The notes under the pieces: generated by a model
Databases searched by the model: none
What the model saw: only the letters and a program-made list of their open reading frames with translations
What the model was told of the DNA's origin: nothing
Shown: in pieces, positions 2,078-7,090 of the stretch
How the letters are laid out: each line of letters opens with the position of its first letter
Position numbering within the stretch: the stretch's first letter is position 1
Source of the DNA: Oscillospiraceae bacterium
GTDB lineage: Bacteria > Bacillota > Clostridia > Oscillospirales > Ruminococcaceae
Assembly: GCA_017415165.1 (NCBI GenBank)
Contig: JAFQIY010000043.1
Span: forward strand, 93,261 to 157,260
Direction of reading: 5' to 3'
DNA: 64,000 nucleotides
Translations under genes and position numbers: made by a program

Positions 2078-2104
2078 AGGCGTATGTGAAAAAGCATACG
2101 CCTG
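2078..2104 (+). terminator. First copy of a duplicated terminator hairpin (element A, left)
   Basis: The arm AGGCGTATG pairs with CATACGCCT around a TGAAAAAG loop. The same 27 bases recur at 2278-2304, exactly 200 bases later. This copy has no T-run behind it; it runs straight into a palindromic element. Confidence 0.7.
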
Positions 2105-2277
2105 AACCTGTCGATAAAGTCGACAGGCTAATGAAAAATGAATAAAGAATAATGAATAGTGAATAGTTAAGGTGTCCGCTTTGCGGACATTTTTAATATC
2201 ATTGCCGAAGGCAATTCCTTAATTATTCATTATTCAATATTCACTATTCATTGTCGAAAAGTTTTTTCGACAAACTG
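2105..2277 (+). mobile_element. MITE-like palindromic element, copy A, inside a duplicated terminator
   Basis: About 173 bases with no coding capacity. It begins with hairpin CCTGTCGA/TCGACAGG (2108-2128) and ends with hairpin TTGTCGAAAA/TTTTCGACAA (about 2251-2273) and then ACTG. Between them lie AT-rich long arms (repeats of GAATAATGAATAG on one side and their complement on the other), a TGTCCGC/GCGGACA hairpin and an ATTGCC/GGCAAT hairpin. Related copies occur at 3996-4124 (inverted) and 6880-7060. The flanking terminator hairpin is present on both sides as a 27-base direct repeat, which looks like a target duplication. No transposase is visible. Confidence 0.7.
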
Positions 2278-2312
2278 AGGCGTATGTGAAAAAGCATACG
2301 CCTGTTATTTTT
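2278..2312 (+). terminator. Second copy of the terminator hairpin with T-run (element A, right)
   Basis: Identical to 2078-2104 over 27 bases, but followed by TTATTTTT. This is the functional-looking rho-independent terminator for the lipoprotein gene at 636-2000. Confidence 0.8.
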
Positions 2313-2471
2313 ATAGAAGCATTCTTGCTGCTTCATCAGAGTATATGCTTTTCTCTGCAAACACGGGCATATATTTGACAAAAACAGCATCATTGTTACA
2401 CCATAATGGTCTAAAATGTGTTAAAGTATAATTACATTAAACGGAAAACATTTTCGAGAAGGAGTGTTTAT

Positions 2472-3881
2472 ATGAAAAACTTTAAAAGAATAACAGCTAT
2501 GATTTCAGCGCTTGCAATGTTCGGCACATTTACAGCGTGCAGCACAGATGACGGAATTGCAAGTGAGGCAGAGGTAACAAGTGCAACAACTGCACCTAAG
2601 CAGCTCAGCGAAGAAGAACAGGCAGCTGTACAGGAAGTCGAAATCACTGATGAAAAGCTTGAAAACGGTACAGTAAAATGGCTTGCTACATACGATATCA
2701 ACCCTGACAAGGGCAAGCCCAAGCTGTTTGCACTTGAGCTTTTTGAGACAAAATACGGCGGAAAAATTGAATATATTCCAACAACCTGGGAAAACCGCTA
2801 CAATGACCTTTCCACAATGGTAATCGGCGGAAGTGCTCCTGACCTTTTCCCTGCTCAGGAATTCGACACATTCCCAAGCAAGGTTGTTGACGGTATGTTC
2901 CAGCCGTTTGATGATTATCTTGATTTTGATGATGCGTCACTCTGGACTGAAGGTGCAAAGAAGCTTGCTGATGCGCACGTTATGGGCGGCAAGCACTATG
3001 TTGCTCCTGTAAATACAGACTCCAAGTGTCTTATGATTTACAACAAGAAAACAATGGAAGAAAACGGACTTACCGACCCTGCTGAGCTTCTTGCAGAGGG
3101 CAACTGGACGTGGGATACCTTCCGTGAAATGTGCCTTGAATACTGCGACCGTGAGGCTGACCAGTTTGCTTATGACAGCTGGTATTTTGAAACACAGTTT
3201 GTACTTACAACAGGTGTTGCTCCGATTGCTATGGAGAATGGTCTTGTAAAGAACAATATTGACAGCGCTGAGCTTGAACGTGCTGAGAACTTTATGTATG
3301 AGCTGAAAAAGGCTGACCTGCCGCTTCCTAAGGCAGAGTTCAACTGGACAGAACAGCCTCAGCGTATTGCAGAGGGCAAGACACTTTTCTGGCCTTGCGC
3401 AACGTGGGCACTCTGGGAAGCTGACCTTTCCAAGTTCGGTGAACCGGGCGAGATTATGTTTGTTCCAATGCCTCGTGACCCTGACGCTGATGAGTATTAT
3501 CTCCCTGCAAATATGGACGCTTACGCACTTTGTAAGGGCGCAGAAAACCCCGAGGGTGCAGCTGCATTCATCAAGTGCAAGCTTATTGCTGAAAAGGATG
3601 AAAGCGCACTGGCTATTACAGAAAATCAGTACCGTGAGGACTACGGCTGGACTGACGAAATGTTTGAAATGTGGTACAAGGTAAGAGAACTTACCGACGC
3701 TAATCCTGTTGTCAGCCTCCATATGGGTCTCCCTTCCGAAGTAGCTGCAATCGTTGATGACTCCATCAAGCAGGCTTCCTTCAGCGGTAAGGACTGGAAT
3801 GTTACAAGAGAAGAAATCAGCGGTCTTACACAGACAACCGTTGATGAACTCAACCACCAGATTCAAGAAAAGTTTTCCTGA
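2472..3881 (+). CDS. Extracellular solute-binding lipoprotein (family 1, sugar type)
   Basis: 469 residues from the ATG at 2472, which has GAAGGAG eleven bases upstream; an in-frame ATG at 2418 lacks a site and lies over the likely promoter (TATAAT at 2427-2432). The signal peptide ends in a lipobox (FGTFTAC), so it is a lipoprotein. The mature part has the classic family 1 layout: KWLATYDINPD, then ALELFETKYGGKIEYIPT, APDLFPAQEFDTFPS, a YNKKTMEENGL block and a late NPEGAAAFIKCKL block, as in carbohydrate ABC importers. No permease or ATPase gene is next to it, so it is an orphan binding protein that probably uses a transporter encoded elsewhere. Its neighbours are glucanases, so a beta-glucan or xyloglucan oligosaccharide ligand is a reasonable guess. 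A strong terminator follows. Confidence 0.9.
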   Translation: MKNFKRITAMISALAMFGTFTACSTDDGIASEAEVTSATTAPKQLSEEEQAAVQEVEITDEKLENGTVKWLATYDINPDKGKPKLFALELFETKYGGKIEYIPTTWENRYNDLSTMVIGGSAPDLFPAQEFDTFPSKVVDGMFQPFDDYLDFDDASLWTEGAKKLADAHVMGGKHYVAPVNTDSKCLMIYNKKTMEENGLTDPAELLAEGNWTWDTFREMCLEYCDREADQFAYDSWYFETQFVLTTGVAPIAMENGLVKNNIDSAELERAENFMYELKKADLPLPKAEFNWTEQPQRIAEGKTLFWPCATWALWEADLSKFGEPGEIMFVPMPRDPDADEYYLPANMDAYALCKGAENPEGAAAFIKCKLIAEKDESALAITENQYREDYGWTDEMFEMWYKVRELTDANPVVSLHMGLPSEVAAIVDDSIKQASFSGKDWNVTREEISGLTQTTVDELNHQIQEKFS

Positions 3882-3907
3882 TTAATAATCCTCATAATTT
3901 TCCTTCT

Positions 3908-3948
3908 GATAACCCCGTTTCCAAGTGAAGCGGGGTTATCTCTTTTTT
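3908..3948 (+). terminator. Rho-independent terminator of the solute-binding gene
   Basis: GATAACCCCG pairs with CGGGGTTATC, followed by TCTTTTTT. Confidence 0.9.
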
Positions 3949-3973
3949 AGCCGAAAGCTGCTCCAAGAAAAAA

Positions 3974-3995
3974 GGGCAGATATTATTATCCGCCC
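3974..3995 (-). terminator. Terminator hairpin of the GH5 gene, copy with T-run (element B)
   Basis: GGGCAGATA pairs with TATCCGCCC with one mismatch. Read on the minus strand it is followed by a T-run (complement of 3967-3973), so it serves the GH5 gene that ends at 4160. A near-identical copy is at 4125-4147. Confidence 0.75.
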
Positions 3996-4124
3996 AAGTT
4001 TGTCGAAAAAGTCTTTTCGACAATGAATAATGAATAGTTAAGGTGTCCGCAAAGCGGACACCTTAACTATTCATTATTCTTTTTTCATTTTTCATTAACC
4101 TGTCGAGTTTATCGACAGGTTCAA
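3996..4124 (-). mobile_element. MITE-like palindromic element, copy B (inverted, shorter)
   Basis: Reverse-complement relative of the elements at 2105-2277 and 6880-7060. On the minus strand it starts with the CCTGTCGA hairpin and ends with the TTGTCGAAAA hairpin followed by ACTT. Its core (4025-4079) is a near-perfect palindrome with 26-base arms around an AAA loop, because it lacks the extra ATTGCC/GGCAAT hairpin of the other two copies. It is flanked by two copies of the GH5 terminator hairpin that differ by one base in the loop. Confidence 0.7.
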
Positions 4125-4147
4125 GGGCAGATATTATATATCCGCCC
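4125..4147 (-). terminator. Gene-proximal copy of the duplicated GH5 terminator hairpin (element B)
   Basis: Same stem as 3974-3995 with a one-base longer loop. No T-run follows on the minus strand; the element begins directly. It lies 13 bases after the GH5 stop. Confidence 0.65.
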
Positions 4148-4159
4148 GTATCTTTTCAA

Positions 4160-5113
4160 TTACAGATATTTCAGAAGTTCATCACGAATTCCGTCAAGCC
4201 TTGCATCGGAAAGTCCGAAGTCCATTTCCTTGTAGCTCCAAGCGCTTCTTGAAATGCCGTGCTTTTCAAATACTGCATTTATGCACTTGAACCATTTCAG
4301 TGTATCCTCAGGGGAAACCTTATCAATAACGCCATATTCTCCGCAGTAGAGATTTGTGTTATTTCTCTTTGCAGCTTCAATTGCCGAAGCAAAAAATTGC
4401 TCGAAATATTCCTCTGTAACTCCGCTTTCTTCAAATGAAATTCTGTCCTCAGGATTAATCATATCAGTCCAGTAAGCACCCTGATGAGTAAATTTCAGCG
4501 GGTCGTAGCTGTGAAAATTATACACCACATTTTCGTCGTAAGGCTTTGCAAGGTCTTTAACAGCTTCGGCACTGTTATTCCAGTAGCTTCCCACAAGAAT
4601 AAGCGTGTGCGGTGCAATAGCCCGTATTCTTTTTATGCAGGTTTCAGCAATAGAATTCCACTTTTCGCTGTACTCTTTATCTGTAACCTCGTTCAGAAGT
4701 TCAAATGCAATGCTGTCGGGACGATTTCCGTATCTGAGCGCAAATTTCTCCCACAGCCTGTAAAATCTCTCCTGCAAATCTTCGCTGTCAAAAAATCCGC
4801 TTTCATTTTCTCCGTAATTATCGAAGGAAAATCCTGCTGTTTTATGCAGGTCAAGGACAGCGTTCAGTCCGAATTTTGCGCACAATTCAAATGCACGGTC
4901 AATTCTTTCAAACCCGTCATTTTTATATGTACCATCGGAATTTTCGAATATATTGTAGTCAACAGGTATTCTGACGTGGTCTACCTTCCAGCTGCTTATT
5001 TTTTCAAAATCAGACTCTGTAATAAAGTTGTTCAGTCTGTCTACGCTGTAGTCGCACTGTGAAAACCATCCGCCGAGGTTTACACCCTTATGAAAGCTTT
5101 TGCCTTTTAACAT
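4160..5113 (-). CDS. Glycoside hydrolase family 5 enzyme, cytoplasmic
   Basis: 317 residues. GH5 (clan A, TIM barrel) retaining beta-glycanase: HVRIP near residue 50, LDLH at 87-90, the acid/base in FELLNE (Glu142), NFHSYDP at 199-205 and the nucleophile in YCGEYG (Glu259). All are present, so it should be active. There is no signal peptide or membrane anchor, so it probably cleaves imported beta-glucan, glucomannan or xyloglucan oligosaccharides inside the cell. The GH5 subfamily and substrate cannot be settled by eye. It is divergent from the GH16 licheninase gene with a 196-base promoter region between, which suggests joint control. Its terminator contains element B. Confidence 0.9.
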   Translation of the reverse strand: MLKGKSFHKGVNLGGWFSQCDYSVDRLNNFITESDFEKISSWKVDHVRIPVDYNIFENSDGTYKNDGFERIDRAFELCAKFGLNAVLDLHKTAGFSFDNYGENESGFFDSEDLQERFYRLWEKFALRYGNRPDSIAFELLNEVTDKEYSEKWNSIAETCIKRIRAIAPHTLILVGSYWNNSAEAVKDLAKPYDENVVYNFHSYDPLKFTHQGAYWTDMINPEDRISFEESGVTEEYFEQFFASAIEAAKRNNTNLYCGEYGVIDKVSPEDTLKWFKCINAVFEKHGISRSAWSYKEMDFGLSDARLDGIRDELLKYL

Positions 5114-5168
5114 AATTCATCGTTCCTTTCAGAGTTTATGCTTTTAATATAGCATATCACATTTGTAA

Positions 5169-5198
5169 TTAATATCATAAACTTGTTCGTTATGTCAA
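5169..5198 (-). promoter_or_regulatory. Probable sigma-A promoter of the GH5 gene
   Basis: On the minus strand TTGACA (5198-5193), an 18-base spacer, then TATTAA (5174-5169), about 55 bases upstream of the start codon. Confidence 0.5.
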
Positions 5199-5227
5199 AA
5201 TATTGTCACAAAAACAACAACAAATAA

Positions 5228-5257
5228 TTGACATATACAACAAAAATATGATATTAT
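5228..5257 (+). promoter_or_regulatory. Probable sigma-A promoter of the GH16 gene
   Basis: TTGACA (5228-5233), an 18-base spacer, then TATTAT (5252-5257), about 50 bases upstream of the ATG at 5310. A further TATAAT-like box near 5275 has no good -35 partner. Confidence 0.55.
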
Positions 5258-5309
5258 CAGATTGTGAAAAGTATTATAATTATGTCATAAACAATTCGGA
5301 GGTAATTTT

Positions 5310-6089
5310 ATGAAAACTATAAAAATTATTCCAGCACTTCTGACAGCAGCAATGATATTTACAGCCTGCGGAAATGGGGCAGATGAAACTGTATCTGAAA
5401 TCAATACGGAAGCTGTTGTTACAGAAAAAATTGATGACGGTTCAGCTTATGCCGAATTCACAAGCGGTATGCCCGCAGGATGGGAATGTGCTGACGGCTG
5501 GACAAACGGCAGTATGTTCAACGTTACCTGGCGAAAGGACAACGTTACTTTCAATGACGGAAAAATGCAGCTGATAATTGACAAGGATTTGCTTGAAACA
5601 GATGGTATACCCTATGCGGGCGGAGAATTCCGAAGCACCGGATTTTACGGCTACGGACGATATGAGGTGTCGATGAAAGCAATAAAGAACAACGGCGTGG
5701 TTTCGTCTTTCTTTACATATACAGGACCTTCTGACGGAAATCCCTGGGACGAAATTGATGTTGAAATTCTCGGCAAGGACACAACAAAGGTTCAGTTCAA
5801 CTATTTTACGGACAGCAAGGGTAACCACGAGTATATGCACGACCTTGGCTTTGATGCATCGGAGGATTTCCATACTTACGCATTTGAGTGGCACAAGGAC
5901 AAAATTGTCTGGTTTGTTGACGGTGTTGAGGTTTACAGCGCACAGGAAAATATTCCTGTCACAGAAGGCAAGATTATGATGAATGCCTGGTGCGGAACAG
6001 GCGTTGACGGCTGGCTTAATGCATTTGACGATACAAATATGCCCCTTACGGCAGAATATGAATGGGTAAGATTTACACCTTTTGAATAA
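5310..6089 (+). CDS. GH16 licheninase (beta-1,3-1,4-glucanase), lipoprotein
   Basis: 259 residues. The signal peptide ends in a lipobox (MIFTAC, Cys20), so the enzyme is anchored outside the cell. After a short acidic linker the whole GH16 jelly-roll domain follows. The active-site signature reads [12 protein letters not shown]: nucleophile Glu148, helper Asp150, acid/base Glu152. The following KVQFNYFTD and the C-terminal EYEWVRF are typical of bacterial lichenases that cut mixed-linkage beta-glucan. It should release short cello-oligosaccharides from cereal beta-glucan. RBS GGAGG is 7 bases before the ATG. The AraC gene starts 21 bases downstream, so the two form one operon. Confidence 0.93.
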
Positions 6090-6110
6090 AATATAATCGG
6101 GAGGTATTTT

Positions 6111-6842
6111 ATGAACGTAAATAAAAAGCTGTCCCACGTTGAATTTCTTAATCGTGAATACAACATTTCGCATCTTTCATATGAACGTGAAATGGCGTTT
6201 TTCAACAGCATAAAGGAAGGCAATCCCGAAGAAGCGGCACGTCTGTTCAAGCCGTTCAACAGCGAAGATATGGGCAGGCTGAGTGATGACAGCCTGCGTA
6301 ATCTGAAATATCATCTGATTATAACGGTTGCTTTCATTACACGCTATTGTATCGAAGGCGGTATGGAGATGGAAGCGGCATACAATCTGAGCGATATATA
6401 TATCCGCAGTATTGACAAGTGCCGTACCGAGGAAGAAATCAATCTGCTTCATCACGAGGTTGTTGACGACTATGCACAGAGGATGAATATTATCCGCAAA
6501 CAGAACCGTTACCCTAAAGCGGTTACGATATGTCTGGACTATATTTATGATAATCTGCACCGTAAAATATCGCTGGAAAAGCTTGCGGAAACCGTTTCGT
6601 TAAGTCCTGCCTATCTGTCAAAGCTGTTTCATAAGGAAACGGGTATGACTGTTTCGGGGTACATAACTAAAAAGCGTATTGAAGCAGCCGCAAATATGCT
6701 GAAATTTTCGGATTATTCCTGCCTTGAAATTTCGGAGTATCTTTGTTTCAGTTCAGAAAGCCATTTTATACAGGTGTTCAAAAAGCAGACAGGGTATACC
6801 CCTAAAACTTACCGTGAGAAATTTTTCAGGAGTAAGGTATAA
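6111..6842 (+). CDS. AraC-family transcriptional regulator in the GH16 operon
   Basis: 243 residues. The C-terminal 100 residues are two AraC helix-turn-helix units: SLEKLAETVSLSPAYLSKLF, then the second helix around CLEISEYLCFSSESHFIQVF and the conserved KQTGYTPKTYR end. The N-terminal 130 residues are all-alpha and are not the usual cupin; they resemble the N-terminal part of many Clostridia AraC proteins whose ligand is unknown. It is co-transcribed with the GH16 gene (RBS GGGAGG, 21-base gap), so it probably controls the local glucan genes. The effector is not predictable from sequence. Confidence 0.9.
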   Translation: MNVNKKLSHVEFLNREYNISHLSYEREMAFFNSIKEGNPEEAARLFKPFNSEDMGRLSDDSLRNLKYHLIITVAFITRYCIEGGMEMEAAYNLSDIYIRSIDKCRTEEEINLLHHEVVDDYAQRMNIIRKQNRYPKAVTICLDYIYDNLHRKISLEKLAETVSLSPAYLSKLFHKETGMTVSGYITKKRIEAAANMLKFSDYSCLEISEYLCFSSESHFIQVFKKQTGYTPKTYREKFFRSKV

Positions 6843-6851
6843 ATGTATTAA

Positions 6852-6879
6852 ACCGCCGCAGTTACCATACTGCGGCGGT
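6852..6879 (+). terminator. First copy of a duplicated terminator hairpin (element C, left)
   Basis: ACCGCCGCAG and CTGCGGCGGT arms around TTACCATA. An identical 28-base copy is at 7061-7088, 209 bases later. No T-run follows this copy. Confidence 0.75.
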
Positions 6880-7060
6880 GAGCCTGTCGATAAAGTCGAC
6901 AGGCTAATAAAAAATGAATAAAGAATAATGAATAGTGAATAATTAAGGTGTCCGCTTTGCGGACATTTTTAATCTTATTGCCGAAGGCAATTCCTTAATT
7001 ATTCATTATTCAATATTCAATATTCACTATTCATTGTCGAAAAGGGTTTTCGACAAACTG
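6880..7060 (+). mobile_element. MITE-like palindromic element, copy C
   Basis: About 181 bases, nearly the same as copy A (2105-2277): starting hairpin CCTGTCGA/TCGACAGG, long AT-rich complementary arms, TGTCCGC/GCGGACA and ATTGCC/GGCAAT hairpins, terminal hairpin and the same ending CGACAAACTG. Compared with A it has one extra TATTCAA unit in the right arm. It is flanked by perfect 28-base copies of the terminator hairpin. No coding capacity. Confidence 0.7.
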
Positions 7061-7090
7061 ACCGCCGCAGTTACCATACTGCGGCGGTTT
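7061..7090 (+). terminator. Second copy of the terminator hairpin (element C, right)
   Basis: Perfect copy of 6852-6879, with TTAACTATATCTTT behind it. It ends the GH16-AraC operon and faces the convergent GH74 gene. Nothing else is recognisable in 7091-7198. Confidence 0.7.

What the first reader, a model, noticed from the sequence alone, without database searches (positions are those of the whole stretch)
2078..7088. Three related palindromic elements, each inserted between two copies of a terminator hairpin
Seen directly: elements A (2105-2277), B (3996-4124, inverted) and C (6880-7060) share end hairpins and inner palindromes. Each is bounded on both sides by the same terminator stem-loop: 27 bases identical in A, 28 identical in C, 22-23 with one loop difference in B. 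The three flanking hairpins are unrelated to each other, so the duplicated sequence is target sequence, not part of the element. In all three cases the element points the same way relative to the transcript it ends, and the distal hairpin copy keeps the T-run where one is present. This suggests a small mobile element that targets rho-independent terminators and duplicates the whole hairpin, leaving termination intact. Long variable target duplications are known for a few insertion sequences, but I know of no described element with this behaviour.
Basis: partly seen in the sequence, partly recalled or inferred. Interest (0 to 1): 0.88.

Follow-up and report, generated by a model that had tools for sequence, protein, structure and literature searches.

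The report
Mobile element that copies terminator hairpins
A small selfish DNA element in a Ruminococcus-related bacterium jumps into the hairpins that end gene transcripts and duplicates the whole hairpin, whatever its length; larger transposase-carrying relatives in other bacteria do the same, which suggests that the enzyme reads DNA shape rather than sequence.

Summary
I count about 46 copies of the element in the own genome (a lower bound). Of 30 copies with both ends inside a contig, 26 lie between two copies of one hairpin; seven more pairs were recovered across contig breaks. These 33 hairpins (15-40 bp) are all different. The element is a MITE whose ends and target habit match IS1182-family insertion sequences. 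In 40 distinct insertions of such IS, Providencia and Enterococcus plasmids included, the repeat is again the hairpin (17-39 bp), and its length differs between copies of one IS (20, 23, 29 and 35 bp in one genome). Three filled/empty plasmid pairs show one hairpin without the IS and two with it. Best model: a DDE transposase joins the element to the 5' foot of an extruded hairpin on each strand, so the stagger equals the hairpin; the shape-reading step is inferred. IS1272 of the same family is reported to delete hairpins instead; a 2017 paper drew whole-hairpin duplication as a hypothetical branch. Against: four two-ended copies lack the repeat, no IS1182 transposase was found in the own genome, no empty site for the MITE itself was found, and orientation to genes is mixed (7 with, 5 against).

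The parts
2078..2104 (+). proximal copy of terminator hairpin, element A (target duplication)
   Evidence: identical to 2278-2304
2105..2277 (+). MITE copy A, 173 bp
   Evidence: query, which scored 40 of 76 candidate copies in the own genome
2107..2127 (+). left-end palindrome CCTGTCGATAAAGTCGACAGG of A
   Evidence: C41:95367-95387
2251..2273 (+). right-end palindrome TTGTCGAAAAGTTTTTTCGACAA of A
   Evidence: C41:95511-95533
2278..2304 (+). distal copy of terminator hairpin of A, followed by a T-rich tail
3972..3995 (-). distal (minus-strand) hairpin copy of B, followed by T6 on the minus strand
3996..4122 (-). MITE copy B, 127 bp, internally shortened, inverted
4000..4023 (-). right-end palindrome of B
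   Evidence: C41:97260-97283
4099..4119 (-). left-end palindrome of B
   Evidence: C41:97359-97379
4123..4147 (-). proximal hairpin copy of B, next to the GH5 cellulase gene (4160-5113, minus)
6852..6879 (+). proximal hairpin copy of C, downstream of the AraC-type regulator gene (6111-6842)
   Evidence: identical to 7061-7088
6880..7060 (+). MITE copy C, 181 bp
6883..6903 (+). left-end palindrome of C
   Evidence: C41:100143-100163
7034..7056 (+). right-end palindrome of C
   Evidence: C41:100294-100316
7061..7088 (+). distal hairpin copy of C (not called by the terminator scan)

Best explanation
A, B and C are copies of a non-autonomous element (MITE, 127-189 bp) moved in trans by a transposase of the IS1182 family. 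Shown: most copies sit between two copies of one hairpin, usually terminator-like; the duplicated stretch is the hairpin itself, so its length follows the target and not the element; autonomous IS1182 elements with matching ends do the same; on plasmids, sites without the IS have one hairpin. Inferred: the MITE was moved by such an IS (none was found in the own genome). Inferred: the transposase recognises an extruded hairpin or cruciform, or its four-way junction, and the two 3' ends of the element attack the two 5' feet, one per strand; gap filling then copies the whole hairpin on each side. Terminators thus become sequence-independent landing sites next to genes, and a hairpin with its T-tract stays downstream of the element.
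For: Copies: 26 of 30 two-ended copies have the repeat; at contig breaks each of 7 right-end flanks matches one and only one of 8 left-end flanks (scores 17-32, all other cells 9 or less), one left flank staying unmatched. All 33 hairpins differ. IS relatives: 39 distinct insertions, gathered because a hairpin repeat had been seen, 34 with identical copies, 17-39 bp; a 40th on pELF_USZ. Same IS, different lengths: 22/22/17, 22/20/23, 35/20/23/29, 22/34/27 and 19/20/18 bp. Empty sites: L209/L212, L216/L221 and L218/L222 have exactly one hairpin when empty. Geometry: hairpin axis within half a base of the repeat's centre in 33 of 39 IS and 22 of 25 MITE events; mirrored G-C pairs in 0-3 of 39 IS events at positions outside the edge and 16-23 one to seven positions inside; in MITEs 0-2 of 25 outside and 2-14 inside. 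Tails: at least 4 T of 8 after the distal hairpin in 33 of 39 IS and 25 of 25 MITE events. Ends: L061 TCAGCTTGTCGAAAAA and TCAGCCTGTAGAAAAA, MITE xAGCCTGTCGATAAA and CAGTTTGTCGAAAAA. Transposase L061: NF033551 at 392 bits, cut-off 270.
Against: No IS1182 transposase was found in the own genome (93% complete, 75 contigs). Four of 30 two-ended MITE copies lack the repeat, and one IS copy, L195, lacks it. L084, a close relative, shows only an 8-bp flush repeat, and L163 none. The five ISEfa7 copies read show no hairpin repeat. Other IS1182 members are reported with 4-bp repeats: ISPse1 and ISCaa15. No empty site for the MITE itself: in sister species the terminators are too diverged. Nothing here shows that duplex DNA, rather than RNA or single strands, is the structure read; the AlphaFold model is poor (mean pLDDT 60) and its PDB matches weak.
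Confidence: 0.78

Rival explanations
1. Same IS1182-family system, but the structure recognised is a hairpin on exposed single-stranded DNA (lagging-strand template) or in an R-loop at the terminator, not a cruciform in duplex DNA.
For: Many targets lie between convergent genes by crude ORF calls, where supercoiling, paused polymerase or R-loops could all expose hairpins.
Against: A whole-hairpin duplication at both ends is most simply explained by strand transfer to both strands at the two feet, which needs both strands present (inference). Orientation to genes is mixed, 7 with and 5 against.
Confidence: 0.2
2. The hairpins belong to the element (an end module or a SPRITE-like terminator element), so nothing is duplicated.
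For: The element's own ends are also palindromic.
Against: The 33 MITE and 39 IS hairpins are all different and the empty sites of the IS relatives hold one of them.
Confidence: 0.01
4. The MITE is moved by a transposase of another family that shares the target habit.
For: No IS1182 transposase in the own assembly.
Against: The ends and the whole-hairpin duplication match IS1182 relatives, one of them in the same genus.
Confidence: 0.07

Closest known systems
IS1272 / TnSha1 (IS1182 family, Staphylococcus)
   Same: Same family by the papers' statement; targets hairpins without primary sequence specificity, several confirmed there as terminators (PMC4923244, PMC5678879; passages read).
   Different: Reported to delete or replace the target hairpin with no target duplication; here the hairpin is duplicated whole.
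Whole stem-loop duplication, 'pathway b' of Fig 13 in PMC5678879 (passage and legend read)
   Same: Same outcome and geometry: attack at the 5' feet duplicates the whole stem-loop.
   Different: There a hypothetical branch of a model; here it is what the sequences show.
ISEfa7 (IS1182-like, Enterococcus faecium plasmids)
   Same: Its transposase lies in the well-supported clade of 38 rows that holds 24 of the 25 rows labelled duplicators; ends CAGACTGTAGACAAA. A relative on pELF_USZ, 76% identical in DNA, has a 22-bp hairpin repeat.
   Different: The five ISEfa7 copies read show no hairpin repeat, perhaps after rearrangement; IS256 genes adjoin some of them.
IS1182 members with short repeats: ISPse1, ISCaa15 (PMC3281130, PMC3196728; passages read)
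   Same: Same IS family as classified there.
   Different: 4-bp direct repeats are listed for them.
IS of REP palindromes (ISPsy8, ISPa11, ISPpu9, ISRm22; PMC1525189, passages read)
   Same: Target palindromes.
   Different: They break a conserved palindrome at a fixed point with repeats of 0-6 bp, and the target has a sequence consensus.
CRISPR spacer acquisition by Cas1-Cas2 (recalled)
   Same: Duplicates an entire, often palindromic, repeat on insertion.
   Different: Fixed-length, sequence-defined repeat and Cas1 enzyme; here a DDE transposase and many different hairpins.

Membership tests
IS1182 family (autonomous partner) | transposase matches NF033551 over its curated cut-off | tested here: met
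   L061 392, L209 490, L080 390 bits, cut-off 270
IS1182 family (autonomous partner) | DDE catalytic triad | tested here: inconclusive
   D148 and D275 invariant and E402 nearly so in 13 sequences; their role as catalytic residues is inferred, model poor
IS1182 family (autonomous partner) | terminal inverted repeats | tested here: met
   CAGxCTGTCGA-type ends
IS1182-derived MITE | short, many copies, no transposase gene | tested here: met
   127-189 bp, about 46 copies
IS1182-derived MITE | ends match an autonomous element | tested here: met
   same-genus L061, compared by eye
IS1182-derived MITE | autonomous element in the same genome | tested here: not met
   none at E <= 10; assembly incomplete, and not required of a MITE that has stopped moving
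IS1272 type | target hairpin deleted, no target duplication | tested here: not met
   hairpin duplicated
IS1202 type | fixed long duplication near 27 bp (recalled) | tested here: not met
   17-39 bp, variable within one IS
Casposon / Cas1 integrase | Cas1 gene with the element | tested here: not met
   L061 and L209 hold only an IS1182 transposase gene between their ends; others not checked

The most novel reading that the evidence does not exclude
An IS1182 subgroup uses a structure-reading DDE transposase that docks on the junction of an extruded cruciform and joins the element to both 5' feet, so the duplication length is set by the target's fold and not by the enzyme; within one family, the choice of 5' or 3' foot would then separate hairpin-duplicating from hairpin-replacing (IS1272-like) elements.
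Probability: 0.55. Interest if true: 0.78.

Novelty: new variant of a known kind. Interest (0 to 1): 0.64.

Why it matters
DDE transposases are generally taken to cut target DNA with a stagger set by enzyme geometry (established knowledge, recalled). Here one IS makes repeats of 20 to 35 bp depending on the target hairpin, which points to recognition of DNA shape in the cell and makes cruciform extrusion at terminators testable by sequencing insertions. It also suggests how an element can spread to dozens of sites close to genes while a terminator is kept, and it gives a rule for closing assembly gaps: matching hairpins name the contigs to be joined.

Tried and rejected
Rejected: fixed stagger, element-borne hairpins, Cas1-like integrase (see rivals). 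Orientation rule: among two-ended copies with non-convergent neighbours, 7 run with (one of them, L132 at 3509, lacks the repeat) and 5 against the gene that the hairpin ends, by crude ORF calls; L128 and L146 are unclear and the rest lie between convergent genes, so no polarity is claimed. MITE empty sites: enolase and maf/yfhO loci searched in 21 genomes; 6 and 10 of the returned loci were read, terminators too diverged. Viral contigs: no relative. Structure: poor model, no PDB match at E <= 0.001. Phylogeny of 55 transposases: one clade of 38 rows (support 99/97) has 24 labelled duplicators, some of them copies from one genome and one (L097) labelled by eye from an imperfect pair, 1 without and 13 unlabelled; a distant duplicator (L178, 24% identity) lies in a clade with 11 non-duplicators; 4 more non-duplicators lie elsewhere; the tree forces at least 3 changes and has long branches. 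Of the non-duplicating group several have GGGGCTGT-like ends and some a T-run right after the right end, which would fit hairpin replacement; not tested. In one search the row of L125 was aligned to a wrong right end; its repeat is taken, and it is left out of the geometry counts. Literature: ten searches and passages of six papers gave no description of whole-hairpin duplication apart from the hypothetical branch. The two IS reviews by Siguier are not held, so ISfinder-level knowledge, such as long variable repeats in IS1182 (recalled as 0-60 bp), could not be checked.
Full report
The observation. The three elements and their flanking hairpins are at the stated coordinates. In this window exact hairpin direct repeats of 16 bp or more within 2.5 kb occur only at A and C; B's pair differs in the loop.

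Copies in the own genome. The window lies in a 2.62-Mb, 75-contig genome. The first element search scored 40 of 76 candidates, so counts are lower bounds; pattern searches and a second search added more. I read 52 places and 35 wider stretches. They hold 38 copies inside contigs (matches over 90 bits; weaker ones were dropped), 30 with both ends and 8 without the left end, and 15 fragments at contig ends. Of the 30, 26 have a hairpin repeat and 4 do not (L125 corrected). The weakest is L130, 14 of 15 bases. Of the 8 truncated copies, 3 still show hairpins that look related on both sides (L148, L149, L155; by eye). Of the contig-end fragments, 7 right ends match 7 of 8 left ends by hairpin, one to one: the repeat itself names the contigs that should be joined. 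That makes 38 + 7 + 1, about 46 copies, and 33 hairpin pairs, all different, 15-40 bp. In the other 20 genomes of the genus that were searched no match is longer than about 130 of 181 positions, so the burst looks local to this lineage.

What moves it. G001 has an IS1182-family element whose ends match the MITE's and which abuts a terminator hairpin; its other side is a contig end. A scan of named genomes gave 42 loci, of which 28 were examined and 11 had a hairpin repeat by the script; some of the rest lie at contig ends, L097 shows an imperfect pair, and L084 only 8 bp. Of 36 loci from family- and phylum-wide searches, 11 had it. Of 26 further loci, 19 had it: 18 of 20 genome loci (not L195 and L205) and the Providencia plasmid, but not the four ISEfa7 plasmids or pTVN. 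The three sets overlap in part. Three more Providencia insertion sites followed. The compiled list, made of loci that had shown the repeat, has 39 distinct insertions; a fortieth, on pELF_USZ, was read by eye.

Length follows the target. In five groups, each one IS of constant length to within a base (1563, 1548, 1595, 1501 and 1596 bp), the repeats are 17-22, 20-23, 20-35, 22-34 and 18-20 bp. Over 64 events the repeat begins with A in 51 and ends with T in 55; at least 4 T of 8 follow the distal hairpin in 33 of 39 IS and 25 of 25 MITE events, and at least 4 A of 8 precede the proximal one in 32 of 39 and 21 of 25, as in bidirectional terminators. Mirrored G-C pairs are nearly absent outside the edge (0-3 of 39 IS, 0-2 of 25 MITE events) and frequent inside (16-23 of 39 IS events at positions 1-7, n being 37 at position 7; 2-14 of 24-25 MITE events). 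The joining sites thus sit about one or two A-T pairs outside the G-C stem, on both strands; the MITE profile is weaker than the IS one.

Empty sites. pPROV040-OXA against pPROV084-1; the IncC plasmid pPROV040-1 against pSHE-CTX-M; p15793A_225 against pNX2019-MW2: in each pair the 25 bases on either side match exactly and the empty plasmid has exactly one hairpin with its T-tract, the filled one two; pCHS4.1-1 is a further empty site for the third with one T fewer. L213, a more distant plasmid, could not be compared. The IncC left flank covers at least 80% of the query in 949 plasmid records.

Mechanism. Shown: target choice, extent of the repeat, the family of the transposase in relatives. 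Inferred from this and from the general chemistry of DDE enzymes: attack on the 5' foot of the hairpin on each strand, followed by gap filling. PMC5678879 drew this as pathway b, and proposed attack at the 3' feet with loss of the hairpin for IS1272; PMC4923244 reports partial deletion of hairpins by TnSha1/IS1272 (passages read). The element itself folds into an end hairpin, a long branched central hairpin and a second end hairpin (C with its flanks as DNA, z -17.5; A with its flanks as RNA, z -14.7).

Effects. A hairpin with its T-tract stays downstream of the element. Orientation relative to genes is mixed. The proximal hairpin is cut off from its T-tract, so read-through into the element is possible; IS relatives such as L061 and L080 carry a hairpin just inside the left end (by eye) that may stop it. 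This is inference.

Novelty. Hairpin targeting in this family is known; whole-hairpin duplication with length set by the target, its occurrence in Clostridia, Enterococcus and Providencia, and the MITE are not described in the papers that my ten searches of the held library found. I therefore call it a new variant of a known kind.

Noticed in passing
G000 contig ends (L013, L015, L024, L027, L041, L042, L045, L047, L049, L050, L055-L058): Assembly breaks fall inside MITE copies, and the flanking hairpins pair the broken contigs one to one (C28-C4, C46-C7, C48-C61, C27-C51, C43-C15, C61-C11, C63-C54).
   Followed up: yes
L156, L164, L166, L170, L172, L184, L062: A second IS1182 group with GGGGCTGT-like ends shows no long repeat; in some (L156, L164, L170) a T-run follows the right end, as if the IS had replaced a terminator stem.
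   Followed up: partly
L178, L197-L201 (genome G400): A transposase only 24% identical to L061 also has hairpin repeats (23-35 bp), so the habit is either older than the main clade or arose twice.
   Followed up: partly
L148-L155: Eight MITE copies lack the left end (L154 also the right); 7 of 8 keep a hairpin close to the right end, and L152 and L153 overlap an open reading frame on the left.
   Followed up: partly
G003 maf and yfhO loci (L250, L270): The sequences downstream of both genes begin with matching inverted half-hairpins (AAGGGTATCGA), as if something had inserted into the loop of that terminator.
   Followed up: no
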